A stretch of DNA of 64,000 nt from Spirochaetales bacterium (GTDB lineage Bacteria > Spirochaetota > Spirochaetia > DSM-27196 > Salinispiraceae). Where the stretch lies: positions 1 to 64,000 of the forward strand of contig JAACWS010000012.1 of assembly GCA_009991955.1 (NCBI GenBank). Direction: 5' to 3'. The notes beneath the pieces were generated by a model. The model was not told where the DNA came from, did no database searches, and saw nothing but the letters and a program-made list of their open reading frames with translations. Below, one piece after another: positions 16,370 through 56,612 of this stretch (positions are counted from its first letter, which is position 1; each line of letters opens with the position of its first letter). A program made the position numbers and the translations under genes.

Positions 16370-16436
16370 GGGGCCTCCGATACCCCAAGTATAGAATACA
16401 ATTACTCCTTTTGCTCAGTTTGTGTACCCCCTGATT

Positions 16437-16533
16437 GGGACCTCGATAATCTGGTTTTTTGGCCAAGTTGGTCATTGCACCGCAATGACTTAAGAGCCTG
16501 AGCTGATTAAGAATTGCGGTTTATCGAGGTCCC
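16437..16533 (+). ncRNA. Structured leader element, copy A (upstream of lysK)
   Basis: The element is closed by a perfect 13-bp stem, GGGACCTCGATAA (16437-16449) with TTATCGAGGTCCC (16521-16533). Inside are a hairpin GTCATTG-CACCG-CAATGAC (16471-16489) and a second one pairing CTTAA (16489-16493) with TTAAG (16507-16511) around a loop with CTGAGC; the two inner stems compete for one or two bases. A second copy at 56516-56612 keeps the same pairings and 39 of 47 core bases. It ends 61 bases before the lysK start. It may be a cis-regulatory RNA or a structured repeat; I do not recognise a known riboswitch class. Confidence 0.6.
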
Positions 16534-16594
16534 CCTGACATATACAACTCCCCGATTGAATCCGCATAGTTTCTCGGTCTATACTCCCAAGACT

Positions 16595-18256
16595 ATGGAA
16601 AATACATCGAAAAACCCGTCCCATTCGAGCCACTGGGCAGATATAAATGCCGACAAAATTATGAGAAGCCGCCGAACGGGCGATCAAGAACCCACCTACG
16701 TATGCGCATCGGGAATTACTCCTTCGGGAACCGTACATATTGGTAACTTTCGCGAAATTATCAGTGTCGAGTTGGTCGTTCGGGCCCTGAGGGATAAGGG
16801 TGCTCGGGTTCGGTTTATTTATTCCTGGGACGATTACGACGTCTTTCGTAAGGTGCCTAAGAACATGCCCCAACAGGAAATGCTCGAAAAGTACTTACGA
16901 TGGCCAATTACCATGGTTCCCGATCCCTTCGAAAAAACTACCAGTTACGCCCGGTCTAATGAGGTTTTGGTTGAGAAGCTCTTGGTAAAAGTGGGAATTA
17001 GTCCCGAATATCTCTACCAAGCCGACAAGTATCGCGCGGGTGATTACGCTCAAGGAATGCGCCGGGCCCTGGAGCATAGAGATACAATCCGGGTTATTCT
17101 GGATGAGTTCCGGACTGAACCCTTGCCTGAAGACTGGTGGCCCATTTCGGTATTCTCGAGTTTTACCAACAAAGATACTACCACTGTTCTTGATTGGGAT
17201 GGCCAATGGGGACTTACCTACCGGTGCGACGAGACCGGGAAAACCGAAACCCTTGACTTACGAACCACACCCTGGGCAAAGCTTCCCTGGCGCATCGACT
17301 GGCCTATGCGATGGGCTTACGAAGGAGTAGATTTTGAACCCGCAGGAAAAGATCATCACAGCGAGGGAGGCTCCTTCGATACTGCTCGAAAGGTGAGTGA
17401 AGCGGTATATGGGGTACAAGCTCCTGTCACCTTTCAGTACGATTTTATTTCAATCAAAGGTCGGGGCGGGAAAATTTCCAGCTCCTCGGGAGAGGTAGTA
17501 GGTCTGGATGACGTGCTGGAGGTGTATACCCCGGAGGTAACCCGATATCTCTTTGCGGGAACTCGACCAAATGCTGAATTTGCTATCAGTTTTGACCTGG
17601 ACGTAATAAAAATCTACGAAGATTACGACCGATGTGAGCGGGTTTTTTATGGAATTGACCAGGTAAACGACAAGAAAAAAGAAAAAGAATCCCGGATCTA
17701 CGAACTTTCCCAGGTAGAAACGCCGGCCCCGACCCAGCCCCTTCAACTTCCCTTCCGTCACCTCTGTAATCTACTCCTTATAATGAATGGCGAATTTCAG
17801 CGGGCAATTCGCGCCTTTCCCGAAGTTGCAGTCCTCGAAGCCGAAGACAAACTTTCTCCCGGGTGGTGGGCTACGGCAGAAAACCGAGCCCAATGTGCCT
17901 GGAACTGGCTTCAAAGTTTCGCCCCCGAGGACTTCGTTTTTCAGGTCCGAGGACCCCAAGACCCAGCGATAGCCCTGGCGGACTACTACGAGGGGATTAC
18001 CGTAAATTCGGCTCATAGGGCTGCAAAAATCTTGGTCCAAGACCTTGAGGGGGGCAATTTTTCTCGGCTCGACGAGAAAGCCCTGGGAGATCGCCTGTAC
18101 GAAATTGCCCGAGAAGCAGACCTCGAACCAAAGGTTTTCTTTGAGGTTCTTTATTTAATGATAGTAGGAAAGACCCGAGGGCCTCGGCTGGCGGGTTTTT
18201 TAAAGACCCTCGGGACCGATCGGGTTCTTTCTATCCTACACGCCTACGGGAGATGA
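16595..18256 (+). CDS. lysK: Class I lysyl-tRNA synthetase
   Basis: This 553-residue enzyme charges tRNA-Lys. It is the class I (archaeal/spirochaetal) type, unlike the class II LysRS of most bacteria. The HIGH-type signature is SGITPSGTVHIGN (HIGN at residues 48-51) and the KMSKS-type is KISSSSGEV (about residue 292). The DHHSEGGSFD segment is also characteristic. The ATG at 16595 gives the usual N-terminus; an in-frame upstream start at 16514 would run through the structured leader and is rejected. rpiA follows after three bases, so they share a transcript. Confidence 0.95.
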   Translation: MENTSKNPSHSSHWADINADKIMRSRRTGDQEPTYVCASGITPSGTVHIGNFREIISVELVVRALRDKGARVRFIYSWDDYDVFRKVPKNMPQQEMLEKYLRWPITMVPDPFEKTTSYARSNEVLVEKLLVKVGISPEYLYQADKYRAGDYAQGMRRALEHRDTIRVILDEFRTEPLPEDWWPISVFSSFTNKDTTTVLDWDGQWGLTYRCDETGKTETLDLRTTPWAKLPWRIDWPMRWAYEGVDFEPAGKDHHSEGGSFDTARKVSEAVYGVQAPVTFQYDFISIKGRGGKISSSSGEVVGLDDVLEVYTPEVTRYLFAGTRPNAEFAISFDLDVIKIYEDYDRCERVFYGIDQVNDKKKEKESRIYELSQVETPAPTQPLQLPFRHLCNLLLIMNGEFQRAIRAFPEVAVLEAEDKLSPGWWATAENRAQCAWNWLQSFAPEDFVFQVRGPQDPAIALADYYEGITVNSAHRAAKILVQDLEGGNFSRLDEKALGDRLYEIAREADLEPKVFFEVLYLMIVGKTRGPRLAGFLKTLGTDRVLSILHAYGR

Positions 18257-22079: not shown

Positions 22080-22196
22080 GTAACATTTTCAGCCATTGTT
22101 ACCGATTGTTAACTAGGAAGTTACCTGAAAATTCTATTAAAAAAGTGGCTGGTTTGTAGATCGTCTGCTTGTTTAGCCACGAGCGGAGAAATGTAA
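22080..22196 (+). promoter_or_regulatory. Long leader with inverted repeats and a start-stop pair
   Basis: Three short inverted repeats fall in the leader: GTAACA/TGTTAC (22080-22085, 22097-22102), ATTTTCAG/CTGAAAAT (22085-22092, 22125-22132) and GTGGCT/AGCCAC (22145-22150, 22175-22180). The first two overlap, so they are alternatives. The third ends just before GGAG (22185-22188). An ATG-TAA pair at 22191-22196 lies between that site and the true ATG at 22199. This could tune translation of a very long and costly mRNA. Confidence 0.35.
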
Positions 22197-22198
22197 TA

Positions 22199-25100
22199 AT
22201 GGCAAACCCGAAAAAGGGTCCTTTTTCTCTAGTACTATTGTCTCTCTTGGGAATTTTGTTGACCAATTGTGATGTGGGAATAGGATCTCAGGTTGACGTC
22301 GCACGACCATCAGCTGCTTTAGAAAGCCACGAGCCCGGGGACTATCTTCGGGGTACAGTCACCCTTCGAGGAACAGCTACCGACGATATTGGTGTGGTTG
22401 GGGTCGAAGTCTCGGTGAATGGTGGCATTTCCTTTGTTGCCGTTCCCACCGAAACCTTGATTCTTCGGGGCAAAACTGCCGAATGGGCCTACGATTTAGA
22501 TACAAGAACCATACCCGACGGGCCCATTTCTGTGGTCGTAAATGCCACCGATGGCTCAGGTAGAATAGCTCAAACTGATACCCTGGTTTTTAACATCGAT
22601 AACACTCCCCCGGTCTTAGTAGTATCGTCTCCCCGGAATTACGAAAGCATTATTCTCAATACCCAGGGCGTTTTGACCCTCGAAGTGAGTGATATTAGTC
22701 CTCTGACTTCCTATGGTATCCAGGTTTGGTCTGCCGTACCCGATACACCGGAACAGACGGCCAATTCTTCTTCTCTTGTTTGGAATCTCATTTCGCCCGA
22801 GTATGCCCCAAAGATCATAGAGAGAAGCGGCTCTCCTTTTGTATACACCTTTTCTTCGCTACCCTTTACCCAAGACCTCGTAACCCCCCGTAAGTTCTTT
22901 CGATTTGCTCTTTGGGCGACAGACAGGGCAGGCAATACCAGCACCTCGTTTTACCATGGGGACGAAATATACCCACTCAATGAGAATCAGGCCCTTTCGG
23001 CGGTAGAGCTGAGTCAAATTCTTGGGGGTCAACCAAAAATTCTCTCCGACGGGAGTGTACTTCAGGCGAATGATCTAACCTCGGTAGCCCAGCAGGCCGA
23101 TGGAAATTCCCGGTTCATCCTCCTGTTTGATGAAGAATTCGATATTCCAAAAATTGGACTGTCTTATCCTTCGGTTTCTTCTCTGGGTCCTGAACAATGG
23201 CCAACCGTTTCATCGAGTGATGTCCTTCAAGGGTATTTTCAGGACGATGATGGAATCGATCTCAATACCATGACCATTTCGGTAGATCGACTCGTGAATG
23301 GAGATGGTAGTCAGTCTAGCGACTGGTCCGAAGTTGTCGATTCAGTCCCAATCAGTAATTATCAACTCAATAGCGAAATTGGTAATCGCCGGGTAGATTG
23401 GCAGTATTCAGTTGTTGGACTACCGCTGCCAAACCAGGGTCGGTTTAGGTTGCGTACCCAGGTACACGACGTTAATGGGACCCTATCGGTACTCTTTAGT
23501 CAAAATCTTATTGTCAGCGATGGTAAGCCTTCAGTATCGATCGAACCACCTTTATCGGGGTTTCTTTCAGACACCTTAACGATAGAGGGCAACGCATCCC
23601 ACGCGGTCCCTCTCGACGGGGTGCAAATTCTTATCGGTTACGGTTCCTCAGTGAGTCCTACCTGGGTTTACGACTCCTCCGATGATCTTTGGGCCCAGTA
23701 CGACCACGACACCACAAAATGGACCTTTAATTTCCCAATCCCCGATCTACCGGTGGTTCCCGAAGGAACCGTCATCGTTGAGGCCCGGGCGATGGTAGGC
23801 AGTGAGTTCGAGTCACGACAAGTGACCTTCGTTCGCGATACCCAGGCCCCAAATGGAAGCTTCCTATCGCCTGCATCCGGTTCCTACTTAAACGAAATAG
23901 CGGAAATTACGGGATTTGCCGACGATAATCGGTCTGGGGTCGAAAAGCTCGAGTTTAGAGTTGGTGCCCCGGGAACTTGGTGGGGGTTCAATTCGGAGGT
24001 TGGTGGACCTTCCTTGGGTGTTGAGGGGTACGAATTTGAAGGAACCCTCTCTAATTTTGTGTTCAAATTTGACTCGACCAACTTCGTCGATGATACGTTG
24101 TATCCAATTTGGCTACGGGTCACTGACCGAGCTGGAAACCAATACGAAGTTAACCGGTCATATAGAATTTTCCAAGACAGCGACCTGCCGGAACTTGACC
24201 TCTTGAATGTAGATGCATCCTCATCCGCGGTCGAAAATATACTTTCGGGAGTTCCGGCACGAATTTTGGGCACAGCCCTCGATGATGATGGTTTCCTCGA
24301 TGGAACCGGTCAGGTAGTATCCGGGGTTCTTCAGTATAGAATACGTTCCTTCGATTTGTCCGAAAATCCCGGAGCTTGGTCGAGTTGGAGAAATGTTCCG
24401 AGTCCTATCCCTAACGGATCGAAAGAGGTGAGTTTCTCTCTATCCCTCGTCCACCCAGACACTTTACTCTCCTTGGGAGATGGTATTCACGAAGTACAAA
24501 TGTGGGTTCAGGATAAGAATGGAATAGGTCTTACCCGAGGTGTTCAAGAAACTGGCGGTATTGTCATTCCGTTTGCAATCGACAACGGTCCTCCAACTCT
24601 TTCCTTTCTCCCTCCAACCCCTGTCCCTGGAGCCTCGGTGCCCGATTCCTTGCCTTTCGGACTTTCGGCTAGCGATGCCCTTGGGCTTCAGTCGGTGCAA
24701 GTGCAAGTCGAAGGCCCATCGACACCCTCGCCCCTGGTCCTCTTTACCGCCGGGCCCGATCGGGTAGCTTCTCAAACCTTTACAAATTCTCTTGAAAGCC
24801 TGAACTCGGGAACCTATACCCTAACCGCTACCGCCACCGACCTGGCTGGAAGTACCGGATCAATCAACCGAACCCTCATTGTAGACCGTGATATTCCAAG
24901 CGCCACCATAACGACCCCCGAAATGGGGGCAAAAGTCAATGGTATCGTAACCTTGCGGGGTGGGGCTAACGATATACAAAGGGTGGATCGAGTCCATTAC
25001 ACACTGTTGCCGGTCGGACAGAATCCTCCCCTCGATAAGATAACGTGGGATGTCGCCGATGGGTCCTACTCGTGGAGCATTGAGTGGGATACTACTGCGG

Positions 25101-28100
25101 TAAACGACGGTGACGAGTATATTCTTCATGTTTCTTCCCAGGACCCAGCGGGAAACTGGAGCCCGACGGTTAGCCGGAGCTTCCAGGTCGATCAAAGTTC
25201 CGACCTTCCCCAGGCTTCCTTTACTGACCTCGATCCTGGGATTAACGAAGCCTCGGCAGCGGGAGTTGGTGGGGTCAACCTCCTCGATTTTGGTCCAAGG
25301 GTTCGAGGTACGTTGATCGACGATGACCGAATAGATGCCGGATCAATGCAGATTCGGGTAAATTCGACCCTCTCGGGTGATTGGCAGTCCTTGTCGGGCC
25401 CGGTTGGACCCAGTGGTCTCTCGGTGAATTTTACCCATAATCTGGGTCTAACTGAGGGTATTCACTACTTTTATCTTCGATTCTCCGATGATGCATCCGT
25501 AAAATCGGGCCGTCCGGTGGCTACTACTACCCTCGGCCCTATCTACTTTGCCATTGACACGGCACCTCCGGTTATTTCGTTTACTTCGCCCATACCCGGT
25601 TCGTACCAAGGGAGTGCCTTTGAACTCCGAGGAACCGCAACCGATGGAAATGGGCTGCAACCGGAAATCCTGGTCCGGACCCCCGCCGATAGTTCTTGGG
25701 CCGATGCCACGACTGTAACCCTTGGGGGCGATGGAACGTGGGTAGCAACTATCGATGATCTTTTTACCGGCGCCTGGGAAGGCCCCAGAACTATACAAGT
25801 ACAGGGTACGGATATTTTTGAGAAATCAACTATTGGAACCCTTAGTGTCGTGGTCGATACCCTTTCGCCGGAGGTGACGATTGAGAACCCTGCCCTTGAT
25901 GGTTGGCTGCAGGGGATTTCAGGTTCGGTGGTGGGCCAAGCCAGCGATACCGGTGTCGTAGGGAACGTGTATTATTGGATAGGTGATCGAGGAGTGACAC
26001 CTCCTGCCGAGCGGGCTTCTTGGAGCACCGCCTCGGGAACTACAAGCTGGAACGGGACTTTCAATATGGTCGAACTAGGGGAAGGCCTAAAGACTCTCCA
26101 CGTTCAAGCAGTCGATGGGGCAGGGAATGTAAGCCCCCTAGTAACCAGAGATTATGGCGTAGATCAGAATTCACCCGAGGTAACAGAAACGACCATATCG
26201 AGTCCAAGCGCAGCCCGAAGCAATTTGTTCTCTCTCGGTGGTACGTTTTCCGACTCAAATTCAATCTATCGATTGCGAATTTCCCAGCAGAAGGGTGCGG
26301 GAGATTTTGTCACCATCTATGACTCGAGCTCGTTTTCCGGTGTGTCGTCTTCTTGGAGTTTGTCGGACCTTCCTCGAGATCCCGATGCCCCAGACCCGAC
26401 CCTATCCACTTCTGCACTCCTGGCCGATGGGGTTTATAGCTACCTCATCCACGGCGAAGATGTCGCTGGAAAAGTGCAGTCTGTCAGCCGGGTCATCACG
26501 GTAGACCTGACGGGACCCAGTGTCACTATTAATCAACCCGGAGATGGGGCGGTTGTCAACGGCACCTCCCTGGCGATTTCGGGGACCTCAAACGACCCGG
26601 AAGACGTAAGTCCTATTACAGAAGTCCGCTACTGGGTCGGTAACTCCGTCCAAAGCCCGCCGGTATCCTACGCCGATTGGAGTTTGGCCAGCGGCGGGGC
26701 TTCGTGGACAGGGGTACTCGATTTGCAAGCCTTGGGAGAAGGAAATAAAATTCTACGGATGGTTGCCAGGGACAGTGCAGGAAATTGGAGTCCTGGGCCG
26801 AGTCAACGGGCTTTTGTTCTCGATCAAAACGTGCCCTCTATCACCGAGGAACTGCTCGGAGCAACCGGTCCGACCCTTTTTAGAAACGGGCCCTTTAGTC
26901 TGGGTGGTTCGGTGAGCGACACAAATGGCCTGACCCAGGTCGAGGTTCTTCAGGGGGCAAGCCTTGTTGCTACACTTCCCGTGAGTGGCACCACTTCGGC
27001 CTGGCAGATCGATAACCTGCCCGATGGAGTAGGTACCGATGGTTCCTATACCTACACCCTTCGGGTTACCGATGCAGCCGGTAGAACCTCGAGTATCAAC
27101 CGAAGTCTCACCTTCGATACCACCGATCCCTCGGTTACTCTCGGGTCTTTTTCGCCAATCGTAGGTGTAGATCGGGTGAATGGACAGATAAACGGTACCG
27201 CAACCGCATCGGACCTGAATGGAATTCAAGAGATCCGTTGGTGGTTCCTTCCCCAAACCGACCTCCAGCCAAATTTCGATACCCCCACCGGAACTGCGAT
27301 GCCCCAAGGAAATAGCAGTATAGCCATTGATACTACCAACTATTTGGACGGTAACTATCGTCTTTGGGTTATTGCCAAAGATCAGGCAGAGAATTTTGGT
27401 ATTACCACAAGGGACTATGTAGTGGACCAAGAGTCCGATGCCCCGGTATTTGGATTTGGGTTTTCTGCGGGAGCCATTTATAACGACACACCTTTTACCT
27501 TGGGTGGAACGGTGGCCGACGATGATGGTATTTCTTCTATTGAGTGGCGGGTGAGTGGCATTCTCGAGTGGACACCCCTTGCCCAGTGGACCGAGAACTT
27601 TCCCCTTACGACCAATTGGTCGATTACCATCGACTCCTTGGCCGACGGGGTTGGTCGAACCATAGAACTTCGGGCTATTGATTCGGTTGGAGCAACAACG
27701 TTTGCTACCACTACAACCAGTTCACCGGCCTTCTCGCTCCTCACTCAAAGTCCAATAATCGAAATAGATAGCCCTGTTTCCGGCTTCTCTATAAACGGCG
27801 AAAACGACATTGGGCTGAGTGGTTCGGCCTACGTGGACACGAATGTCTTTGTTCAAAAACTGGAATATCAGCTAGATAACGATGGTTGGGTCTCTTTCTA
27901 CACCGGAACACCGACCGGACCGGTTGGCTATTCTACTTTGATTTTAAAAGACGTGTTGGTTGGGAAATCCGATGGCATACTCCGTCTACGGATCCGAGCC
28001 ACGGGAACAAATGATAAGACGAGTATCGAAACCGTCGAGATCCGAATCGATAAAACGAACCCCGAGGTAGCTTTCAGCATTCCGGCCGCAGGATCTACAG

Positions 28101-31100
28101 TAAATGGTACTATCCGGATAGCGGGAACAGCGAATGACGTAAATGTGGTCGATCGAGTGCGATTGGAAGTTATCCGCGTTTCTAACGGTTCGATAATTCA
28201 GACCTACGAGGATTTGGGTCGATTCACCTGGGAGTTGTCGGGAATGTTGGACACCTTGGCTCTCCAAGACAACGAACCATACCTCCTGCGGGCCACCGCC
28301 TTCGATGGGGCTGGGAACTCTCAGGTCGTCGCACGGACTATACAAATCAACCAAGCCAGCGATACCCCGGTGCTTACCTATTCAAACTTGAATCCCGATG
28401 GTTCTACTCTTTTTGTCGGTAATGGAAATATTCTTGGCACAGCAAATGATGACGATGGGGTTGATCGTTTAGAATATCGTTTCAATTCTGGATCGTGGGT
28501 AACCATTGATCTGGGGGGGACGACCCAAGAGAACTTTAGTATTCCGTACTCGGCCCTGCCCGAGGGGACAAATACCCTCGAAATACGGGCGTACGATACC
28601 GTTGGTCTGGTAGCGGGAACCTACTTTGGTGGAAGTATCGATTTTGGTATCGATCGACTTGCCCCAGAGGTAAGTTTTCTTGGTCCGTTGGCGGATAGTT
28701 TTCAGACCTCGCCCTTCTCTTTGAATGGAATTGCCACCGATGCCAACGGAATCGCCGGGGTAGAGTATCGGGTTGGTGATTCGGGAGTCTTTGCTCCGAT
28801 AGATGAGTACGTTCCTGGAACTGGGGCTTGGAATCACGAAGTTATCTACTCAGGATCCGATGGCAATGCTCGGGTGTATATCCAGGTAACCGACTGGGCG
28901 GGGCGGGTAACGACAGTTAGCCGGCAGTTCGCTTTTGATACGACTCCACCTACCCTAAGTTTCCTAGGTCCCGGGGAAAGCGGTTTTGTCACAGTAAATA
29001 GAGATATCGAAATCTTCGGAACCAGCACAGACATTGGAAGTGGTGTCCAATTGGTCGAGTTGTTTGGTGTCCATCCTGGGGATGGAAATCTGGCAAGTCT
29101 GGGTACGGTGAACGGAACCGGAACCTGGAGTCTCAATTTTGATACCACTCGAGTATCCGAAGTTGGTGGCGATCTTTACGGATACGCCGCAGAAACCTCC
29201 GTGGGAAGTAAAGTCTGGAACCTCACCCTCAGGGCCGTCGCCGGTGATGCTACCGGAAATAGTGGTTCCTTGGACCGAATAATTCAAATTGATCAAACTA
29301 CAAACCGTCCGGTTCTTGAGTTTTCTAATTTTGTCCCCGATGGATCGGCCATTTTTGATTCAAGGGTGAATATTCTTGGTACGGTTACCGACGACGAAGG
29401 GGTCGATTTCTTCCAATACCGCTTCAACGGCGGTTCCTGGACGACTGTAGAGCTTGGAGATGGACCCACTCACGGGATTTCGATTCCTTTGACTAGCCTT
29501 CCCGATGGTCCGTCTACTCTTGAGGTCATCGTGCAAGACATTGAGGGCGGTATAGAGAGTGCTCGTACCCTTGGCCCCGTTGGTTTTGTTCTCGATACAA
29601 CACCTCCTTTGTTGTCCTTCCTTTCTCCTGGTTCAAATAGTTATGAGAACGACGACGTCCTTGTCCGGGTGGCAGCTTCGGATGCCAATGGAATTACGGA
29701 AATTCGAGGTCGAATTGGTAGTTCAGGAGCCTGGACGATTGGATCAGATCAAGGGGACGGTACCTTCACCTTAAATCTCGATACCACCGGCCTCGACCAG
29801 GGACTGCATACCATTTTTGTGGAAGCGGAAGATGCTAGTGGCCTCCTTGGTCGAGTGACCCAGGCTTCCCGAGACTTTACCTACGACTCTGTTCTTCCGA
29901 TTATCTCGGTTCTCAATCCCGAAAGCGGAGCAAACGTCAATGGACAAATTTCGATTCTTGGAACCGCCCAAGACGAGTCGGGAATTTTGGGAACCCAATA
30001 TCGAATTGGAAACCAAGGGGATTTAAATGACGGCTGGATTTCTTTTGCCAATCGACTCAACTGGAACACCGGAAATATTCTGATAAACCAATTCGGGACA
30101 TCTGAATACGGAATCGAAATTACCCCGAATGTATGGGAGGTTCCTCTACTCATTCGAACCACCGACAATGCAGGGAATCTGACCCTTTTGACTTCGTATT
30201 TTCTCGAAATAGACCCCGATGGCGACCGACCCTTTGTACAAATTCTTCAACCCGGCGACGGAGATACCGTTGGGGGTAGAGTGCGTCTGAGTGGTACTTC
30301 CCAGGATGACGACGCGGTATACTCGGTGCAAGTGGCCTTTGACATGAATAACGATGGATCTTTCGTTGGTTCCGGTGATCTCTGGCCCTCTCCTGCGGCG
30401 GGATGGGACCCAGGTCAGGAGCCCCTTGTAGGTCAAACCGACACCGAGACTACCGGATGGTACACCGTTGAGGCCGCAACCGCCGATTGGTCAAATTGGT
30501 ACATCAACCTCAATACCTACAGCGAATTTGATCCCGAACCGGGTCAGACCCGCCAAATCAGCATAAAGGTTCGGTCTATCGATACAAAGGATGGCACGAA
30601 CCCGGGGATCCCAGGAAATCCGGTTACTTTGGGCCTTACTTTTGACTCGAATGCACCTCGAATCGAGAATATGAATTACCAGACCGGCGATACGGTCGGG
30701 GGACAAATCGTATTCCGAGGACTCCTCAAAGATCCTACAGGGTTGGAGAGTTTCCGTTGGATTCGAGGCACCAGTTCTACCTTCCTGGTAAACAATGGCA
30801 CTATCCTCGTACCCGGGCAGATTGCCTTGGTAAACCCAGGGGACCCAGACTTTGAAGCGGGTATTTCGACCTATCGTTTTGCCATTCCAGTGGACACTAC
30901 GACCATTACCGCTTCGGGCCCGGGATTCTTTACCTTCGAGGCAGCAAAAGGAAACTACATAAGTCAGGTTTACGTGAACCTGCAGATCGACAACCTGGTA
31001 CCAACGGGAAGCTTCACCTCTCCCGAGACTATCGACGTGGCCGGTTCCTCCTTCGCCCTCCTGTCGGGCACAAACTACACCCTCCAGGGCACCGCCAACG

Positions 31101-34100
31101 ACAGCGGGTCGGTAAGTGGTGTTCGCTCGGTGGCAGTATTTTTGGAAGACGAAAACGGCGATTATTACGATCTAAGAACGAATCTGTATGGTGGAAGTCG
31201 GGGCCCGGCACTAGCGCCTTTACTGGCTTCGGAGATTATTGCCGGTCAGACCTACTTGATCGTAAACCCAGGAACCACCGATTTCCTCGCCCTCGGTGCC
31301 CTAAGAAACACCCGAGGAATGGTGTTCACTGCGACGGAATCGGGCTCGGTGGGTTCGGGTTCTGGAACCGTGTTGCCCTCCTCGTACTTTGCCCTCATAG
31401 ATACCTTTAACGAAGAAGGACAAGACCTGGTAGAAAATAAGGGCGATCAAGACGGATTCAAAGAAAACCTTTCCCTGTCCGGAGGGACCGTAAACTGGTA
31501 CTGGCAGTTCGACTCAAATCTCTTGAACGACGGCCCAGTTACAATCCACTATGAAACAGTCGACCGAGGCTTCAATACCTCGTCGTCTTCGGTGAACGGC
31601 TTTGTTGCCAATAACCGCCCGGTTATAGACTCAATTGTTCTTGGTACCGATGTGGGTGGTGATGGATTAACCAATGGAACTGGAGAAAGGGTAGAGTTCT
31701 TCGGCGCTTATGGGGCGACACACTTTACCCTTCGAAACGGCGTATTCTTCTATGAGGTTCGAGGAACCTCGGGAAACGGCACCCAGACCTATACCCTCGA
31801 ATACTGGAACGGCAGTGCTTATCTTCCCCTCAATAGTACCACCAATTCCGATGGGCTTTTAACAGACTTTGTAACTCCCGGAATTACTGACACGATTATA
31901 AACGGATCCGAGCCCCCTAACGGTGCCCAGTTCCGCATTCAAGTAACCGATTCCCTCGGGTTAAGCTCCGCGGCAGTTATTGGACTCAATATCGACAATA
32001 TCGACTCCATTTCTCCGACTTCTCGACTTTTTCAACTCACCGCCGACGATCGGGCCATAGACGGTCTGGGAAGATACCTGGGGCACGTCGAGCCCTGGAA
32101 TCAGAGTCCCTTCGATAACATGGATTTAGGATTTGATAAGGTCAACGAGATCCTAGGGAACGATGCTGACGTCAGTGGAAGTGTTATATTCCGTGGTGAA
32201 GCCTGGGATAATCAGCGGCTGGATTCCCTTTGGATTTCGGTGGAAGTGAACCCCGGCGTAACTACTTCCGAGCAGATTGCCGAGGCAGACCCCTCTACGG
32301 GGATTCTGGTCCCCCTTTCAAATAGCCTTGGAAGTCTCGAAATCGATTCCCAGTCTTTGACCCAAAACCAAGGGCACTCGGTGGAATTTGGTTTCCAATG
32401 GAACTCCGCGACAATTGCCGGTGTTGCCAGGGCCAACGTAGGAATCGAGATTGTGTCTCGGGATGCTGGTTTGAACGATTCGACGGTGCAACCTCTGTTG
32501 AACGCCCTTCAAGTGGACGTCGTCCCCTATATTAGTAAGGTAAGTACCGCCCATAGACCAAACGTCGGTGGGCTAAAGGACTTTAATATTCGTACCACCG
32601 ATGGCCGTTATACCCTCGCTAGCGGGAGTACGACTGATTTTATAAGGGTTACGGGATTCAACCTAAATCCAATTGCCAACGGAGTACGAGTCAGTCCAGT
32701 CAGCTTTCCTGAGGGGGTAGACGGTACGAACCTCGTTGGTGAAAGCCTCGCTTTCTCGAACCTGGCTGGGGACTTCACCTCTGTAGATGTCTCCAATGCT
32801 GCTACCGGCTCGGGATACCTGAGTATTGTTGGTGGTACTCTGGCCGAACCAGTTTCGAGTTTGAACAATAGTAACCGCAACGACTTGTCCCACAATATAG
32901 AAGAAGATTTGGTGGTAACCAGGAATCGACTACGGACCGACGACCGGTTCCTCCAATTCTATGGGACGGCTACTACGGGCATCAATTCAGCCACCTATCC
33001 GAACATGATTATGGACGGAGATACCCCGGTCTGGGGTTATATTCAATCGGGCGCAGCAAACGACCAAATGGTCCGGCGGGGTACCACAGGGGCTTTGAAT
33101 ACCCCTCTGACCAGGATCCTGGCTGGTGATCAGTTAGCCATGACCCGAGATGAGGGCGGACGATACCATATGATTTCGGTGAACAACTTCTCCCAAGGGC
33201 GAATTCTCTACTTTAACGACGAATTTGCCGCGGTATCCGGGGACGGAGCGTTTACCAGCCCTTACTGGTCGGGGCATTCAGGGGTAAATACCAGCGCTAC
33301 AGGTAATAACGCCATTCAGCTGGAGAGTGTAAACCAGGCGCCAGGGCTAAAACTGGGCCGCTACGTACGGCCGGTTATTAGAAGTATCGGCAATAGTAGC
33401 GCAGTCGGAGAACACGCCAAACTCTTTATGCTCTACTTCGATAATGCATCGAATCAATTGCTGTTCAGAAACTGGCAGGTGGGTCAAACCGTAACAAACC
33501 AGGCCCAAAACTTGAGTGGTACCTATAGATCAAACCTTCGTGAAAGTAACACCGATGGGCGGCAGGTACTGTCTAACTCCGCATCCGAGCACTTTACCAT
33601 GGCTGTCACCGACGCCGGTATCGTCGTGGTCGGGTATTATGACCAGGCCGTATCTCAGTTTGTCATTCGCTATTCGACTACGACGGCAAATGGTACTGTC
33701 GCCGGAGCCCCAAGTGCAGATAATCCTGCAACCCTGGTAAACTGGTCGGCACCCATACTGGTCCCCGAATTATACATCGGGTGGTATCCGTCGATGACCA
33801 TTGACCCCAATGGCCGAATCCATATTGCGGCCTACGATTCGTCGACTGCAAGCCTTGGCTACATACTTATGGATTCCTTCGATGATTCAACTCCCGAGGT
33901 TGTAACCGTCGATACCTTCAACAGCGTCGGGTATTACACGGATATTCAAATTGGCCCCGATGGACTACCGTGGATCGGGTACTACAACGTATCGGAAACC
34001 GGTACCCGGGATGCTCTACGGGTAGCTCGCTACCTCGGAACACCAGGTACGGCTCTAGAAGGGGTCGATAGTCAAGATTTTGTCACCGGCAATTGGGAGG

Positions 34101-34252
34101 TTGAAACTGTACCGGTAGCTTCGGTGCCCAATGGGGCTAATTCGAGCTTCCTACGGGTAAATCTTGGGTTTACTACTGCCGGAGTTCCCATCCTCGGATA
34201 CGCGGGCACCGGGCTCGAGTATTCCCAACCCCTGCCGGTTATTCAGCCCTAA
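22199..34252 (+). CDS. Giant Ig-like repeat lipoprotein
   Basis: This 4017-residue protein is probably exported and lipid-anchored. The signal peptide ends in the relaxed lipobox LLTNC, with Cys24 as the modified residue. About 28 bacterial Ig-like domains of roughly 90-130 residues fill residues 30 to about 3450. Each opens with a P-x-V/I-x-x-x-x-P strand, then a G-T-A-x-D-x-x-G turn (for example LRGTATDDIGV), and closes with D-x-A-G-N or similar plus V-D-x-x-x-P. From about 3480 there is an IPT-like part (IRVTGFNLNP), then from about 3580 a region with WGYIQSG, DPNGRIHIAAYDSS and GPDGLPWIGYYN that looks like propeller blades. ATG 22199 is preferred over an in-frame TTG at 22169. Likely an adhesin or surface scaffold. 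Its 3' end overlaps the solute-binding protein gene by 14 bases. Confidence 0.85.
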   Translation: MANPKKGPFSLVLLSLLGILLTNCDVGIGSQVDVARPSAALESHEPGDYLRGTVTLRGTATDDIGVVGVEVSVNGGISFVAVPTETLILRGKTAEWAYDLDTRTIPDGPISVVVNATDGSGRIAQTDTLVFNIDNTPPVLVVSSPRNYESIILNTQGVLTLEVSDISPLTSYGIQVWSAVPDTPEQTANSSSLVWNLISPEYAPKIIERSGSPFVYTFSSLPFTQDLVTPRKFFRFALWATDRAGNTSTSFYHGDEIYPLNENQALSAVELSQILGGQPKILSDGSVLQANDLTSVAQQADGNSRFILLFDEEFDIPKIGLSYPSVSSLGPEQWPTVSSSDVLQGYFQDDDGIDLNTMTISVDRLVNGDGSQSSDWSEVVDSVPISNYQLNSEIGNRRVDWQYSVVGLPLPNQGRFRLRTQVHDVNGTLSVLFSQNLIVSDGKPSVSIEPPLSGFLSDTLTIEGNASHAVPLDGVQILIGYGSSVSPTWVYDSSDDLWAQYDHDTTKWTFNFPIPDLPVVPEGTVIVEARAMVGSEFESRQVTFVRDTQAPNGSFLSPASGSYLNEIAEITGFADDNRSGVEKLEFRVGAPGTWWGFNSEVGGPSLGVEGYEFEGTLSNFVFKFDSTNFVDDTLYPIWLRVTDRAGNQYEVNRSYRIFQDSDLPELDLLNVDASSSAVENILSGVPARILGTALDDDGFLDGTGQVVSGVLQYRIRSFDLSENPGAWSSWRNVPSPIPNGSKEVSFSLSLVHPDTLLSLGDGIHEVQMWVQDKNGIGLTRGVQETGGIVIPFAIDNGPPTLSFLPPTPVPGASVPDSLPFGLSASDALGLQSVQVQVEGPSTPSPLVLFTAGPDRVASQTFTNSLESLNSGTYTLTATATDLAGSTGSINRTLIVDRDIPSATITTPEMGAKVNGIVTLRGGANDIQRVDRVHYTLLPVGQNPPLDKITWDVADGSYSWSIEWDTTAVNDGDEYILHVSSQDPAGNWSPTVSRSFQVDQSSDLPQASFTDLDPGINEASAAGVGGVNLLDFGPRVRGTLIDDDRIDAGSMQIRVNSTLSGDWQSLSGPVGPSGLSVNFTHNLGLTEGIHYFYLRFSDDASVKSGRPVATTTLGPIYFAIDTAPPVISFTSPIPGSYQGSAFELRGTATDGNGLQPEILVRTPADSSWADATTVTLGGDGTWVATIDDLFTGAWEGPRTIQVQGTDIFEKSTIGTLSVVVDTLSPEVTIENPALDGWLQGISGSVVGQASDTGVVGNVYYWIGDRGVTPPAERASWSTASGTTSWNGTFNMVELGEGLKTLHVQAVDGAGNVSPLVTRDYGVDQNSPEVTETTISSPSAARSNLFSLGGTFSDSNSIYRLRISQQKGAGDFVTIYDSSSFSGVSSSWSLSDLPRDPDAPDPTLSTSALLADGVYSYLIHGEDVAGKVQSVSRVITVDLTGPSVTINQPGDGAVVNGTSLAISGTSNDPEDVSPITEVRYWVGNSVQSPPVSYADWSLASGGASWTGVLDLQALGEGNKILRMVARDSAGNWSPGPSQRAFVLDQNVPSITEELLGATGPTLFRNGPFSLGGSVSDTNGLTQVEVLQGASLVATLPVSGTTSAWQIDNLPDGVGTDGSYTYTLRVTDAAGRTSSINRSLTFDTTDPSVTLGSFSPIVGVDRVNGQINGTATASDLNGIQEIRWWFLPQTDLQPNFDTPTGTAMPQGNSSIAIDTTNYLDGNYRLWVIAKDQAENFGITTRDYVVDQESDAPVFGFGFSAGAIYNDTPFTLGGTVADDDGISSIEWRVSGILEWTPLAQWTENFPLTTNWSITIDSLADGVGRTIELRAIDSVGATTFATTTTSSPAFSLLTQSPIIEIDSPVSGFSINGENDIGLSGSAYVDTNVFVQKLEYQLDNDGWVSFYTGTPTGPVGYSTLILKDVLVGKSDGILRLRIRATGTNDKTSIETVEIRIDKTNPEVAFSIPAAGSTVNGTIRIAGTANDVNVVDRVRLEVIRVSNGSIIQTYEDLGRFTWELSGMLDTLALQDNEPYLLRATAFDGAGNSQVVARTIQINQASDTPVLTYSNLNPDGSTLFVGNGNILGTANDDDGVDRLEYRFNSGSWVTIDLGGTTQENFSIPYSALPEGTNTLEIRAYDTVGLVAGTYFGGSIDFGIDRLAPEVSFLGPLADSFQTSPFSLNGIATDANGIAGVEYRVGDSGVFAPIDEYVPGTGAWNHEVIYSGSDGNARVYIQVTDWAGRVTTVSRQFAFDTTPPTLSFLGPGESGFVTVNRDIEIFGTSTDIGSGVQLVELFGVHPGDGNLASLGTVNGTGTWSLNFDTTRVSEVGGDLYGYAAETSVGSKVWNLTLRAVAGDATGNSGSLDRIIQIDQTTNRPVLEFSNFVPDGSAIFDSRVNILGTVTDDEGVDFFQYRFNGGSWTTVELGDGPTHGISIPLTSLPDGPSTLEVIVQDIEGGIESARTLGPVGFVLDTTPPLLSFLSPGSNSYENDDVLVRVAASDANGITEIRGRIGSSGAWTIGSDQGDGTFTLNLDTTGLDQGLHTIFVEAEDASGLLGRVTQASRDFTYDSVLPIISVLNPESGANVNGQISILGTAQDESGILGTQYRIGNQGDLNDGWISFANRLNWNTGNILINQFGTSEYGIEITPNVWEVPLLIRTTDNAGNLTLLTSYFLEIDPDGDRPFVQILQPGDGDTVGGRVRLSGTSQDDDAVYSVQVAFDMNNDGSFVGSGDLWPSPAAGWDPGQEPLVGQTDTETTGWYTVEAATADWSNWYINLNTYSEFDPEPGQTRQISIKVRSIDTKDGTNPGIPGNPVTLGLTFDSNAPRIENMNYQTGDTVGGQIVFRGLLKDPTGLESFRWIRGTSSTFLVNNGTILVPGQIALVNPGDPDFEAGISTYRFAIPVDTTTITASGPGFFTFEAAKGNYISQVYVNLQIDNLVPTGSFTSPETIDVAGSSFALLSGTNYTLQGTANDSGSVSGVRSVAVFLEDENGDYYDLRTNLYGGSRGPALAPLLASEIIAGQTYLIVNPGTTDFLALGALRNTRGMVFTATESGSVGSGSGTVLPSSYFALIDTFNEEGQDLVENKGDQDGFKENLSLSGGTVNWYWQFDSNLLNDGPVTIHYETVDRGFNTSSSSVNGFVANNRPVIDSIVLGTDVGGDGLTNGTGERVEFFGAYGATHFTLRNGVFFYEVRGTSGNGTQTYTLEYWNGSAYLPLNSTTNSDGLLTDFVTPGITDTIINGSEPPNGAQFRIQVTDSLGLSSAAVIGLNIDNIDSISPTSRLFQLTADDRAIDGLGRYLGHVEPWNQSPFDNMDLGFDKVNEILGNDADVSGSVIFRGEAWDNQRLDSLWISVEVNPGVTTSEQIAEADPSTGILVPLSNSLGSLEIDSQSLTQNQGHSVEFGFQWNSATIAGVARANVGIEIVSRDAGLNDSTVQPLLNALQVDVVPYISKVSTAHRPNVGGLKDFNIRTTDGRYTLASGSTTDFIRVTGFNLNPIANGVRVSPVSFPEGVDGTNLVGESLAFSNLAGDFTSVDVSNAATGSGYLSIVGGTLAEPVSSLNNSNRNDLSHNIEEDLVVTRNRLRTDDRFLQFYGTATTGINSATYPNMIMDGDTPVWGYIQSGAANDQMVRRGTTGALNTPLTRILAGDQLAMTRDEGGRYHMISVNNFSQGRILYFNDEFAAVSGDGAFTSPYWSGHSGVNTSATGNNAIQLESVNQAPGLKLGRYVRPVIRSIGNSSAVGEHAKLFMLYFDNASNQLLFRNWQVGQTVTNQAQNLSGTYRSNLRESNTDGRQVLSNSASEHFTMAVTDAGIVVVGYYDQAVSQFVIRYSTTTANGTVAGAPSADNPATLVNWSAPILVPELYIGWYPSMTIDPNGRIHIAAYDSSTASLGYILMDSFDDSTPEVVTVDTFNSVGYYTDIQIGPDGLPWIGYYNVSETGTRDALRVARYLGTPGTALEGVDSQDFVTGNWEVETVPVASVPNGANSSFLRVNLGFTTAGVPILGYAGTGLEYSQPLPVIQP

Positions 34253-35384: not shown

Positions 35385-38300
35385 GTGGTGTCAAGGCTTG
35401 TACGTTTAGGTAGTATTTTTCTCTTCGGTATTCACGCGGTTTTCCTCTTTGGTGGGGGCCGGGGTGAAACCGAGTGGCAACCCCTTCCCCAGGGCGAAAG
35501 CTGGGTTCACGAGTATGACCTAGAAGGACTTGATCCCGGTACTTACAACGTTCTTATCCGGGGGGTCGACGGAGCAGGAAACGAAACTCTCGAAGGACCC
35601 TTTAACGTACAAATTGACCCAAATTCCAACCTACCTACCGGTAGAGTAATTTACCCAGAAGACAAACAAGTAGTATCCGGAGACCTTTCGGTGACCGGTA
35701 TTGCGGTCGATGACGATGGAATCGACTTTGTGGAAGTCCAAATAGACGAAGGTCCTTTCGTGAGGGCCGAGGGTACCGAGTATTGGAGAGTACTTTTCCC
35801 AAATACCCCGTCAGACGGCGTACATACCCTTACCGTTCGACCGACTGACATCCATGGGGTCCTAGGAAATTCTACCAGTTCAACGTTTATCTTCGATAGC
35901 CAAGGGCCGAGCATATTTGTCGATTCCATGGAATCGGGTGCCTTGGTTGGTGGTGTAGTTCGAATTGATGGGAGGGTTGTGGATACAAATGGGGTCGAAT
36001 CTCTCGTACTCCAACCGGAACAGAATCTTCGACTTCGAGGTCCCCGGCGAGGAAGCGAAAAGTCTTTTTCCTTTGCCTACGACACCCGAGACTTACCCGA
36101 TGGACCCCATATTCTCACCCTTGATGCGGTGGATTCGACTGGAAAGAAGGTGAGCGAGCCTATTCTTATTTTCGTCGATAACACTCCTCCAGAGTTACAC
36201 ATTCTTGAGCCCCAGCCAGAAACTCCAGTTTCGGGGGTAACAACCTACCTAGGAAGGGTCCAAGATGCGGTAGGTATCCAACGAATAGGCTATAAATTTG
36301 GGGGGCAAGAATTCGAAATCCCTCGAACTCCGGGGGATCTGTATTGGTCTGCCACACTAGACATCTCGAGTGCCGGTCGTCGGGTTCAGGTAGAATTTTT
36401 TGCCGAAGATACCCGGGGCAATCGAACGACTTTGAAGTATCTGAACCCCTACGATGAACAATCCGCCCGTGGATCGTTAGTTTTGGCTCAGGACAAAGAG
36501 GTTCTTTCCTCCGAAGATGTTCTCGTTTTTCGTACCCAGGGTGGGGTTCCTCCTTATCGGGTTCTCCTTGAAGGGGTCTATTCCGACGGTCCTCGAGAGC
36601 GAGAATTTTCCGATCAATTAATCCTTAGGGGAGGGGATTTCGAGCCTGGGCTCCGGAACCTTAAGGTCACGCTCACCGATAGCCTGGGGGTCCAGGGGGT
36701 ACCTTTTACCAAACGAATTACCGTCTTGCCGCCCCAGCCGGAACTTCAGGCCCCAACCCTGCAAGAACAAGAGGCCGAACCCCGCCCTTGGTACCCGGGA
36801 ATAGAGGTGAACGGTAGGGCATCGACCCAGATCCATGGCACCCTCACCTCCGCCGGTGCGATTCAAGTCTTGGAGGCCCAGTTTCGACAGACAGACGCAC
36901 CCGAGACCTGGTCCCGCCTTCGAACTCGACCGATGAGCCCTGGGGTTCTAGGGTATATCCTCGATATTCCCCGGGGAATAACACCGGGCCTGTGGAGTGT
37001 GGATATTCGAGGGCAAGACGAATTTGACCAGCCCTTTTCCCAGAGTTGGCAGTTTTTAGTCCAAGACCAGTCCATACCCCCTGGTGGACCCCACATTCTA
37101 CTGGATGGCCAGATTCTCTCTCCCGGTACCCTGATCTTTGATTCTTCCTTCCCTCGCCAAGGTCGGGTCATTTCTCGAACCCTCGATGATGACTTACGAA
37201 TTTCGATCCAACCCGAAACCGACCTAGTAGAACTCCAAACCCGGGGTTCGTTCTTCTCTCTTCTTCCCCGTACTACCGGTAGTATCCCTCAGGTACAACT
37301 TATAGGAGAGGACTCGGCCGGGCGTCGGTTTCAAAGTTCTCCTTTTGGTATCCAGGTAATAGCCAATGCTTTGCAAGCTCCGCCCATCGATTTCCGGCTC
37401 CAAGATGATGAAACTGGTATCCTTCATCCCCTCGGGCAACCCCTTGTTTTAGAAGGAAACTTGACGGGAAACCTCGAAGAGCTTGCAGTGAGTATATCGA
37501 TCGGGGGTACACCGCCAAAGAATTTACGGATCTCGAGTACCGAGGACCCGAGGGTACGAACCTTTCGAGTATCGATTCCCAGCCCATCAGAACCAAGTAA
37601 TGAACCCCTTTCGGTACTTTTTGAGGGGACGAATAACAGCGGCCAGAGCTTTCGTCGAGAGTATAGCTATTACTTTGTCAATGAAGGATCGAATTCTCCC
37701 GTCCAAGCGGGGCTTCTTTTTCCTCTCTCCGTCCTTGTTCCGAATACCGATACCCTCATCCTGGGAAACCAGGAAGAAGTGTATGTTCGTTTTTTGGGTG
37801 ACAAAGGAGTAAAAGTAAAACCTACTCACCTCGTTTTAAGGCCCGTCGGAGACTCTGAGCCTCTGGTTTCTACGACCCTTCGAGACGATGGGTTCGTACT
37901 TGTGTCTCGGACCGCCGGCCGACAGGATCTTTTGTTTGAGATAGAAGACGAAGACGGGCTCACCTATGAATTTGGACCTTACTCGGTAGTGGTCGATTTG
38001 GCATCTCCCGATCTCAGGATTATAGACCCCATTGAGGGGGCAGGATTCGCCGGGCTACCAAGTTTTGCCCTCGAAATAGCCGACGACTCGACCCCTGTCG
38101 AAGAGCTTGTCCTGAGTGCCCGGGTTGTTTCCGGTAGCGAAAGCCCGTGGATTGATATTCCCACCGAGAACGCTCCACTTCAGAACGTCGATATACAATC
38201 CTTGTCTCCTATCCCCGGTCCCCTTACCGTCCAGTTTCGAGTATCGGACGGAAGTGGAAAGGTTACCTACGCCGAAAGAACTATTCTCTACGACCCTAAC

Positions 38301-56515: not shown

Positions 56516-56612
56516 GGGCTCCTCTATAAAATTTGCGTTTCTGCCTAATCTGGTCATTGTGCCGCAATACCTTAAGGGTCTGAGCCGATTAAGAACTGAT
56601 CAAGAGGTCCCC
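56516..56612 (+). ncRNA. Structured leader element, copy B (upstream of M16 peptidase)
   Basis: This copy shares 39 of 47 core positions with copy A at 16437-16533 (core here 56552-56598). The closing stem is shorter: CCTCT (56521-56525) with AGAGG (56603-56607), extended by GGG/CCC. The first hairpin is kept as ATTG/CAAT plus GGT/ACC with one bulged C. The second hairpin CTTAA/TTAAG is unchanged, with CTGAGC in its loop. It ends 44 bases before the peptidase start. Confidence 0.6.

What the first reader, a model, noticed from the sequence alone, without database searches (positions are those of the whole stretch)
16437..16533. Structured RNA-like element upstream of lysK, repeated 40 kb away
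A 13-bp perfect closing stem encloses two small hairpins, 61 bases before the class I lysyl-tRNA synthetase gene. The same motif recurs on the same strand upstream of an M16 peptidase gene. Counting directly, the 47-base core (16470-16516 versus 56552-56598) agrees at 39 positions, and 7 of 8 differences are transitions. Pairing ability of all three stems is kept. Conserved loop bases include CTGAGC. I know no riboswitch or attenuator with this layout, so a new cis-regulatory RNA or a structured intergenic repeat is possible.
Basis: partly seen in the sequence, partly recalled or inferred. Interest (0 to 1): 0.85.

Follow-up and report, generated by a model that had tools for sequence, protein, structure and literature searches.

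The report
Dispersed IS5-type miniature transposon (MITE)
The folded element in front of the lysyl-tRNA synthetase gene is one of about 70-80 copies of a tiny, gene-less jumping DNA element scattered between genes of this spirochaete, most likely moved by an IS5-type transposase, and not a new regulatory RNA switch.

Summary
The sequence observation is real: a perfect 13-bp closing stem, and a 39/47 match to a second copy 40 kb away. But the element is not a two-copy RNA. It has about 70 copies in this 2.4-Mb genome (70 places at E<=4e-5, 77 at E<0.01). They lie on both strands and almost all between genes. The downstream gene reads the same way as often as the opposite way (34:32). Copies start GGGG/GGGC, end GCCC/CCCC, and are flanked by 5-bp target-site duplications: 25 of 69 copies match with at most one mismatch, against 1.9 expected. 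The window copy itself is flanked by CTGAT/CTGAC. Two identical copies sit at unrelated sites. The element is absent from 51 other spirochaete lysK loci and shows no Rfam match. A promoter-like site lies between the element and lysK, so the element is probably not in the lysK leader. The terminal repeat also occurs 83 bp upstream of an IS5-family transposase remnant in the same genome. In a related order member it bounds a 1.2-kb IS5 element and ~98-bp MITEs. Verdict: an IS5-family MITE, a new member of a known kind. Side observation: an IS110-family (RNA-guided) element has inserted at one fixed position in this repeat at least five times.

The parts
16436..16534 (+). MITE copy 1 (full length, 99 nt), upstream of lysK
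   Evidence: CM R1 match 109.8 bits, E=9e-23; one of about 70-80 copies in the genome
16436..16449 (+). left terminal inverted repeat TGGGACCTCGATAA (family consensus GGGGACCTCTAWAA)
   Evidence: perfect complement of the right end over 13 nt; consensus of copies
16521..16534 (+). right terminal inverted repeat TTATCGAGGTCCCC
16431..16435 (+). left target-site duplication CTGAT
   Evidence: 4/5 identical to the right flank; family-wide statistics
16535..16539 (+). right target-site duplication CTGAC
16471..16489 (+). conserved interior hairpin GTCATTGC-ACC-GCAATGAC, the most conserved part of the family
   Evidence: alignments A1 and A2 (93% of cells paired)
16556..16585 (+). sigma70-like promoter TTGAAT-18-TATACT between the element and lysK
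   Evidence: pattern match only; about 1 expected by chance in the region
16595..18256 (+). lysK, class I lysyl-tRNA synthetase (neighbour, not part of the element)
   Evidence: PF01921 E=9e-128
56516..56612 (+). MITE copy 2 (decayed), upstream of an M16C/PreP-type peptidase gene
   Evidence: CM R1 42.8 bits, E=2.4e-6; closing stem degraded

Best explanation
The element is a MITE: a 98-99-nt, gene-less DNA transposon with terminal inverted repeats (GGGGACCTCTAWAA...TTWTAGAGGTCCCC). It was dispersed by cut-and-paste transposition by an IS5-family (IS5_4-type) DDE transposase acting in trans on the shared terminal repeats, making a 5-bp target duplication. A sister subfamily with GGAATC-type ends has 4-bp duplications in a few copies. 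Shown: copy number, both orientations, termini, target duplications, recent mobility (two identical copies at unrelated sites), and the same terminal repeat at the end of an IS5 remnant in this genome and around an IS5 element plus MITEs in a related genome. Inferred: that this IS5 transposase mobilised the copies, and that the lysK copy is a neutral intergenic insertion upstream of the lysK promoter. The stable fold and stem covariation follow mainly from the two ends being required as inverted repeats, possibly helped by template-switch correction between arms.
For:: 70 distinct places at E<=4e-5 on both strands of many contigs; flank identity peaks at exactly 5 bp (0.493 versus 0.266+-0.024 in shuffles; 7 exact versus 0.2; 25 of 69 within one mismatch versus 1.9, maximum 8 in 2000 shuffles). 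The window copy has CTGAT/CTGAC. L025 and L038 copies are identical with different flanks; almost all copies are intergenic; gene orientation is random (34:32). C62 carries GGGCACCTCTCAAAACC 83 bp before the ATG of a truncated IS5-family transposase (PF05598 E=8e-8, NF033581 E=6e-10). That end scores 22.5 bits against the MITE right-end profile; only 1 of 127,966 window positions (the MITE's own end) reaches it. G036 has a 1.2-kb IS5_4 element (148.5 bits versus cut-off 140) bounded by GGGCACCTCTGGAAAC / GGGTACCTCTGGAAAC. It also has ~98-nt MITEs whose end matches that IS over about 24 nt and which align over full length with the G000 sister subfamily (74-76 identical positions, above every interior shuffle); promoter-like site downstream of the element.
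Against: No intact IS5 element is in the assembly (single hit, C62, truncated), so the mobilising enzyme is inferred. The interior hairpin is more conserved than the ends, more than a random internal-deletion MITE needs. The G036 IS copy has no clear target duplication itself and its transposase reading frame is broken. No empty site was seen, because no close relative is available.
Confidence: 0.94

Rival explanations
1. A cis-regulatory RNA (riboswitch or attenuator) in the 5' leaders of lysK and the M16 gene.
For: Strong fold of copy 1; stem covariation above both controls (88 both-sided cells versus 29 shuffled); both window copies read towards a downstream gene.
Against: About 70-80 copies with orientation random relative to genes (34:32); target-site duplications; absent upstream of lysK in 51 other spirochaetes; no Rfam match; second copy does not fold; promoter-like site between element and gene, and no terminator.
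Confidence: 0.02
2. A Tn3-derived miniature element (TIME): GGGG ends and 5-bp duplications fit that family.
For: GGGG termini, 5-bp duplications, small size.
Against: No Tn3 transposase domain in the genome (PF01526, while controls ring). TIMEs carry 38-bp inverted repeats (PMC4133298) but here the ends match for only about 14 nt. The same end is found on IS5-family elements instead.
Confidence: 0.05
3. A MITE secondarily used by the host: some copies donate a promoter, ribosome-binding site, mRNA-stability hairpin or landing pad, which would explain the conserved interior hairpin.
For: The interior hairpin is the most conserved part. Copies lie almost exclusively between genes, and their left end faces a gene start in 45 of 68 cases.
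Against: The left-versus-right difference in gene orientation is not significant (Fisher p=0.11). Purging of genic insertions explains the intergenic location. Conservation can reflect descent from few recent source copies.
Confidence: 0.1

Closest known systems
IS5-family-derived MITEs, e.g. Porphyromonas gingivalis BrickBuilt/MITEPgRS and Neisseria ATR (PMC4596501)
   Same: Short, gene-less, high-copy, intergenic, terminal repeats shared with a full-length IS5-family element, short and variable target duplications, nested insertions
   Different: Different terminal sequence (GGG-N-ACCTCT), only 98-99 nt with an almost complete fold-back and a conserved interior hairpin; found here only in one spirochaete species plus a sister subfamily in another genus
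Tn3-derived TIMEs (PMC4133298)
   Same: GGGG-type ends and 5-bp duplications
   Different: No 38-bp inverted repeats and no Tn3 transposase in the genome
REP/BIME-type palindromic repeats as targets of IS110/IS1111 elements (PMC1525189, PMC11208160)
   Same: Dispersed intergenic palindrome used repeatedly as a site-specific landing place by an IS110-family element
   Different: The target here is the terminal repeat of a DDE-type MITE with target duplications, not a REP

Membership tests
[quoted passage not shown]
   98-99 nt, about 70-80 copies
[quoted passage not shown]
   13-14-nt complementary ends in most copies
[quoted passage not shown]
   Flank identity peaks at exactly 5 bp, far above shuffles; the 4-bp signal in the GGAATC subfamily is weak (14 copies, 2 exact)
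[quoted passage not shown]
   IS5 remnant in C62 of the same genome; IS5 element of full length in G036 with the sister subfamily's ends
IS5 family (as the mobilising element) | IS5-family DDE transposase between those ends | tested here: met
   NF033581 148.5 bits over cut-off 140 in G036; in G000 only a truncated N-terminus (39 bits, PF05598 over cut-off)
IS5 family (as the mobilising element) | Transposase actually moves these MITEs | not testable with these tools
   Needs a transposition assay
Tn3-derived TIME | 38-bp Tn3-type inverted repeats | tested here: not met
   Ends agree for about 14 nt only
Tn3-derived TIME | Tn3 transposase available in the genome | tested here: not met
   PF01526: no match
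Riboswitch / attenuator | Sits in the 5' leader, oriented with its gene, on a consistent gene set | tested here: not met
   Orientation 34:32; none at 51 other lysK loci
Riboswitch / attenuator | Matches a described RNA family | tested here: not met
   Rfam 15: no gathering hit in the window; no relevant hit at E<=1
REP / RAYT system | GTAG/CGTC-tagged 20-40-bp palindrome with a Y1 (RAYT) transposase | not tested
   No GTAG/CGTC tag was seen at the ends by eye; the target duplications argue against a Y1 mechanism; no Y1 search was run

The most novel reading that the evidence does not exclude
The conserved interior hairpin is under selection beyond mobility: copies serve the host, or serve as the preferred landing site of a resident RNA-guided IS110 element, so that two unrelated mobile elements depend on the same palindrome.
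Probability: 0.08. Interest if true: 0.5.

Novelty: new member of a known kind. Interest (0 to 1): 0.2.

Why it matters
It removes a false lead: strong folding plus covarying stems in two copies looked like a new RNA regulator, but here they are the by-product of a transposon's inverted ends. It also gives a clear MITE family for an uncultured spirochaete lineage, with a candidate IS5 parent. And it shows a natural case of an IS110-family (RNA-guided) element repeatedly choosing a DDE-MITE terminal repeat as its target.

Tried and rejected
Riboswitch/attenuator: rejected on gene orientation, absence at other lysK loci, Rfam and target duplications. Tn3 TIME: rejected, no Tn3 transposase and no 38-bp repeats. 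A zinc-ribbon transposase at contig ends next to GGGGACCTCTATAATC (C89/C35) was examined as the autonomous partner. It was rejected: the MITE end there is a remnant inside that IS's transposase region, and an uninterrupted version exists at C28. Empty-site comparison inside the held loci gave no clean site (its output was cut). Exact-core scans of genome contigs and viral contigs found nothing. The gene-context test used a home-made codon-bias ORF caller, so single gene starts are approximate; start and end distances should not be over-read.

Full report
Observation. The sequence facts in the finding check out. They are the perfect 13-bp closing stem 16437-16449/16521-16533, the lysK ATG at 16595, and the 39/47 match between the two cores with 7 transitions among 8 differences. 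LysK is a class I lysyl-tRNA synthetase and the second gene an M16C/PreP-type peptidase. Copy 1 folds at z=-5.5 against shuffles. Copy 2 does not fold better than shuffles (z=-0.43) and its closing stem is broken, so the claim that all stems are kept is wrong for that copy. The minimum-energy fold of copy 1 also uses a pairing (CCGCAATG with ATTGCGG) whose 3' partner other copies lack.

Genome-wide distribution. A BLAST search of the window's own assembly (2.44 Mb, 90 contigs, 93% complete) found over 40 copies at 75-90% identity. A covariance model built from 30 of them found 70 distinct places at E<=4e-5 and 77 at E<0.01, on both strands, including 16436-16534 and 56516-56612 in the window. 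There are several subfamilies, internal-deletion derivatives of 53-71 nt, nested copies, and two identical copies at unrelated sites.

Transposon anatomy. Left flank and right flank of each copy were compared. Identity rises at exactly 5 bp and nowhere else for the main subfamilies (0.493 versus 0.266+-0.024 in shuffles; 7 exact matches versus 0.2; 25 of 69 copies within one mismatch versus 1.9 expected). The window copy has CTGAT/CTGAC. The 14 copies with GGAATC-type ends show a weaker 4-bp signal (two exact, TCTA and TATA).

Gene context. With a codon-bias ORF caller, nearly all copies are intergenic. The gene beyond the right end reads the same way in 34 cases and the opposite way in 32 (binomial p=0.90). 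A sigma70-like site TTGAAT-18-TATACT (16556-16585) lies between the element and lysK, so the element is probably upstream of the lysK promoter. The site is only a consensus match. No terminator-like structure was found.

Taxonomic reach. BLAST found no copy in 60 relatives, including one incomplete same-genus genome. The covariance model found one match outside this genome among 45 relatives. There was no exact core in 84,980 species genomes or in IMG/VR, and no copy near lysK in 51 other spirochaetes (loci). The host is a spirochaete: its closest LysK relatives are Spirochaetota MAGs including Sphaerochaeta and Rectinema, at about 56-61% identity.

The parent element. The single outside match (G036, another family of the same order) proved to be a sister MITE. 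It is about 98 nt long, has ends GGGCACCTCTGGAAAC, and its flanks share GACT (L238) or TTTC (L136). The same genome has a 1.2-kb element bounded by these ends in inverted orientation (G036:C56:15250-16459) that encodes an IS5-family transposase (NF033581, 148.5 bits versus cut-off 140; PF05598). Its end matches the MITE end over about 24 nt, and the MITE aligns over full length with the GGAATC subfamily of the window's genome, better than any interior shuffle. In the window's own genome the only IS5-type transposase trace (C62) is a truncated N-terminus whose ATG lies 83 bp inside the end GGGCACCTCTCAAAACC. That end scores 22.5 bits on the MITE right-end profile; one of 127,966 window positions, the MITE's own right end, does as well. 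Tn3 transposase is absent.

Covariation. On 62 distinct rows the stems covary above both controls (88 both-sided cells versus 29 in shuffles and at most 49 in slid versions). Most of it is in the closing stem, that is, in the terminal repeats. In a DDE transposon both ends must match, and fold-back DNA can be corrected arm against arm, so this does not argue for an RNA. What remains unexplained is why the interior hairpin GTCATTGC-ACC-GCAATGAC is the most conserved part; recent descent from few source copies is the simplest reason.

A second mobile element uses this one. At C87, C60, C33, C1 and C68, and in shorter form at C69, the same ~80-bp sequence is joined to the MITE at one fixed position within the terminal repeat, in either arm. 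In C68 it leads to a fragment of an IS110-family transposase (PF02371 E=8.5e-15; NF033542). IS110/IS1111 elements are known to target REP palindromes and transposon terminal repeats (PMC1525189, PMC11208160), so this is a known behaviour on a new target.

Conclusion. The finding is a dispersed IS5-type MITE. It is ordinary as a kind, new as a family. It is worth a note mainly as a caution about inferring RNA regulators from two folded, covarying copies, and for the IS110 landing site.

Noticed in passing
G000:C68:30815-31486, C87:1-82, C60:1-87, C33:17064-17144, C1:9724-9785, C69:2-82 (loci L046, L043, L044, L054, L026, L118): An IS110-family (RNA-guided) insertion sequence has inserted at one fixed position inside the MITE terminal repeat (...CATACCAT|CTCTAAAATC) at least five times, in either arm; a sixth junction (C69) keeps only about 12 nt of the repeat. 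Contigs break there, so no complete copy is assembled.
   Followed up: partly
L036 (G000:C40:3475-3706): One MITE copy is split in the loop of its interior hairpin by about 134 nt that contain three A+T-rich hairpins, possibly another miniature element.
   Followed up: no
L010 (C79:157-255) and L011 (C68:431-530): Two MITE copies share the same flanks, which resemble a multicopy zinc-ribbon transposase gene (intact version at C28:1-700): the MITE seems to have jumped into another IS and been carried along with it.
   Followed up: partly
L045 3830-4190 and L047 1-251 (C89 and C35 contig ends): A deleted form of that zinc-ribbon IS has only the 16-nt MITE end GGGGACCTCTATAATC in place of the first part of its transposase gene.
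   Followed up: partly
L248 (G000:C62:1-425): Truncated IS5-family transposase with end GGGCACCTCTCAAAACC, the only IS5-type trace found in this assembly.
   Followed up: yes
C86:40, C84:30085, C36:16461, C10:50, C40:90320 (L121-L125): Five contig ends share a 37-40-nt match to the IS110 transposase fragment, suggesting a second multicopy IS110-type element that breaks the assembly.
   Followed up: no
window 16556-16595: The lysK promoter-like site ends 9 nt before the ATG with no Shine-Dalgarno motif seen by eye, so the lysK mRNA may be leaderless.
   Followed up: no
window 22169-34252 and 35385-40691: Two very large open frames (4027 and 1768 codons) share short internal DNA repeats (for example GATAACACTCCNCC), suggesting large repetitive proteins.
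   Followed up: no
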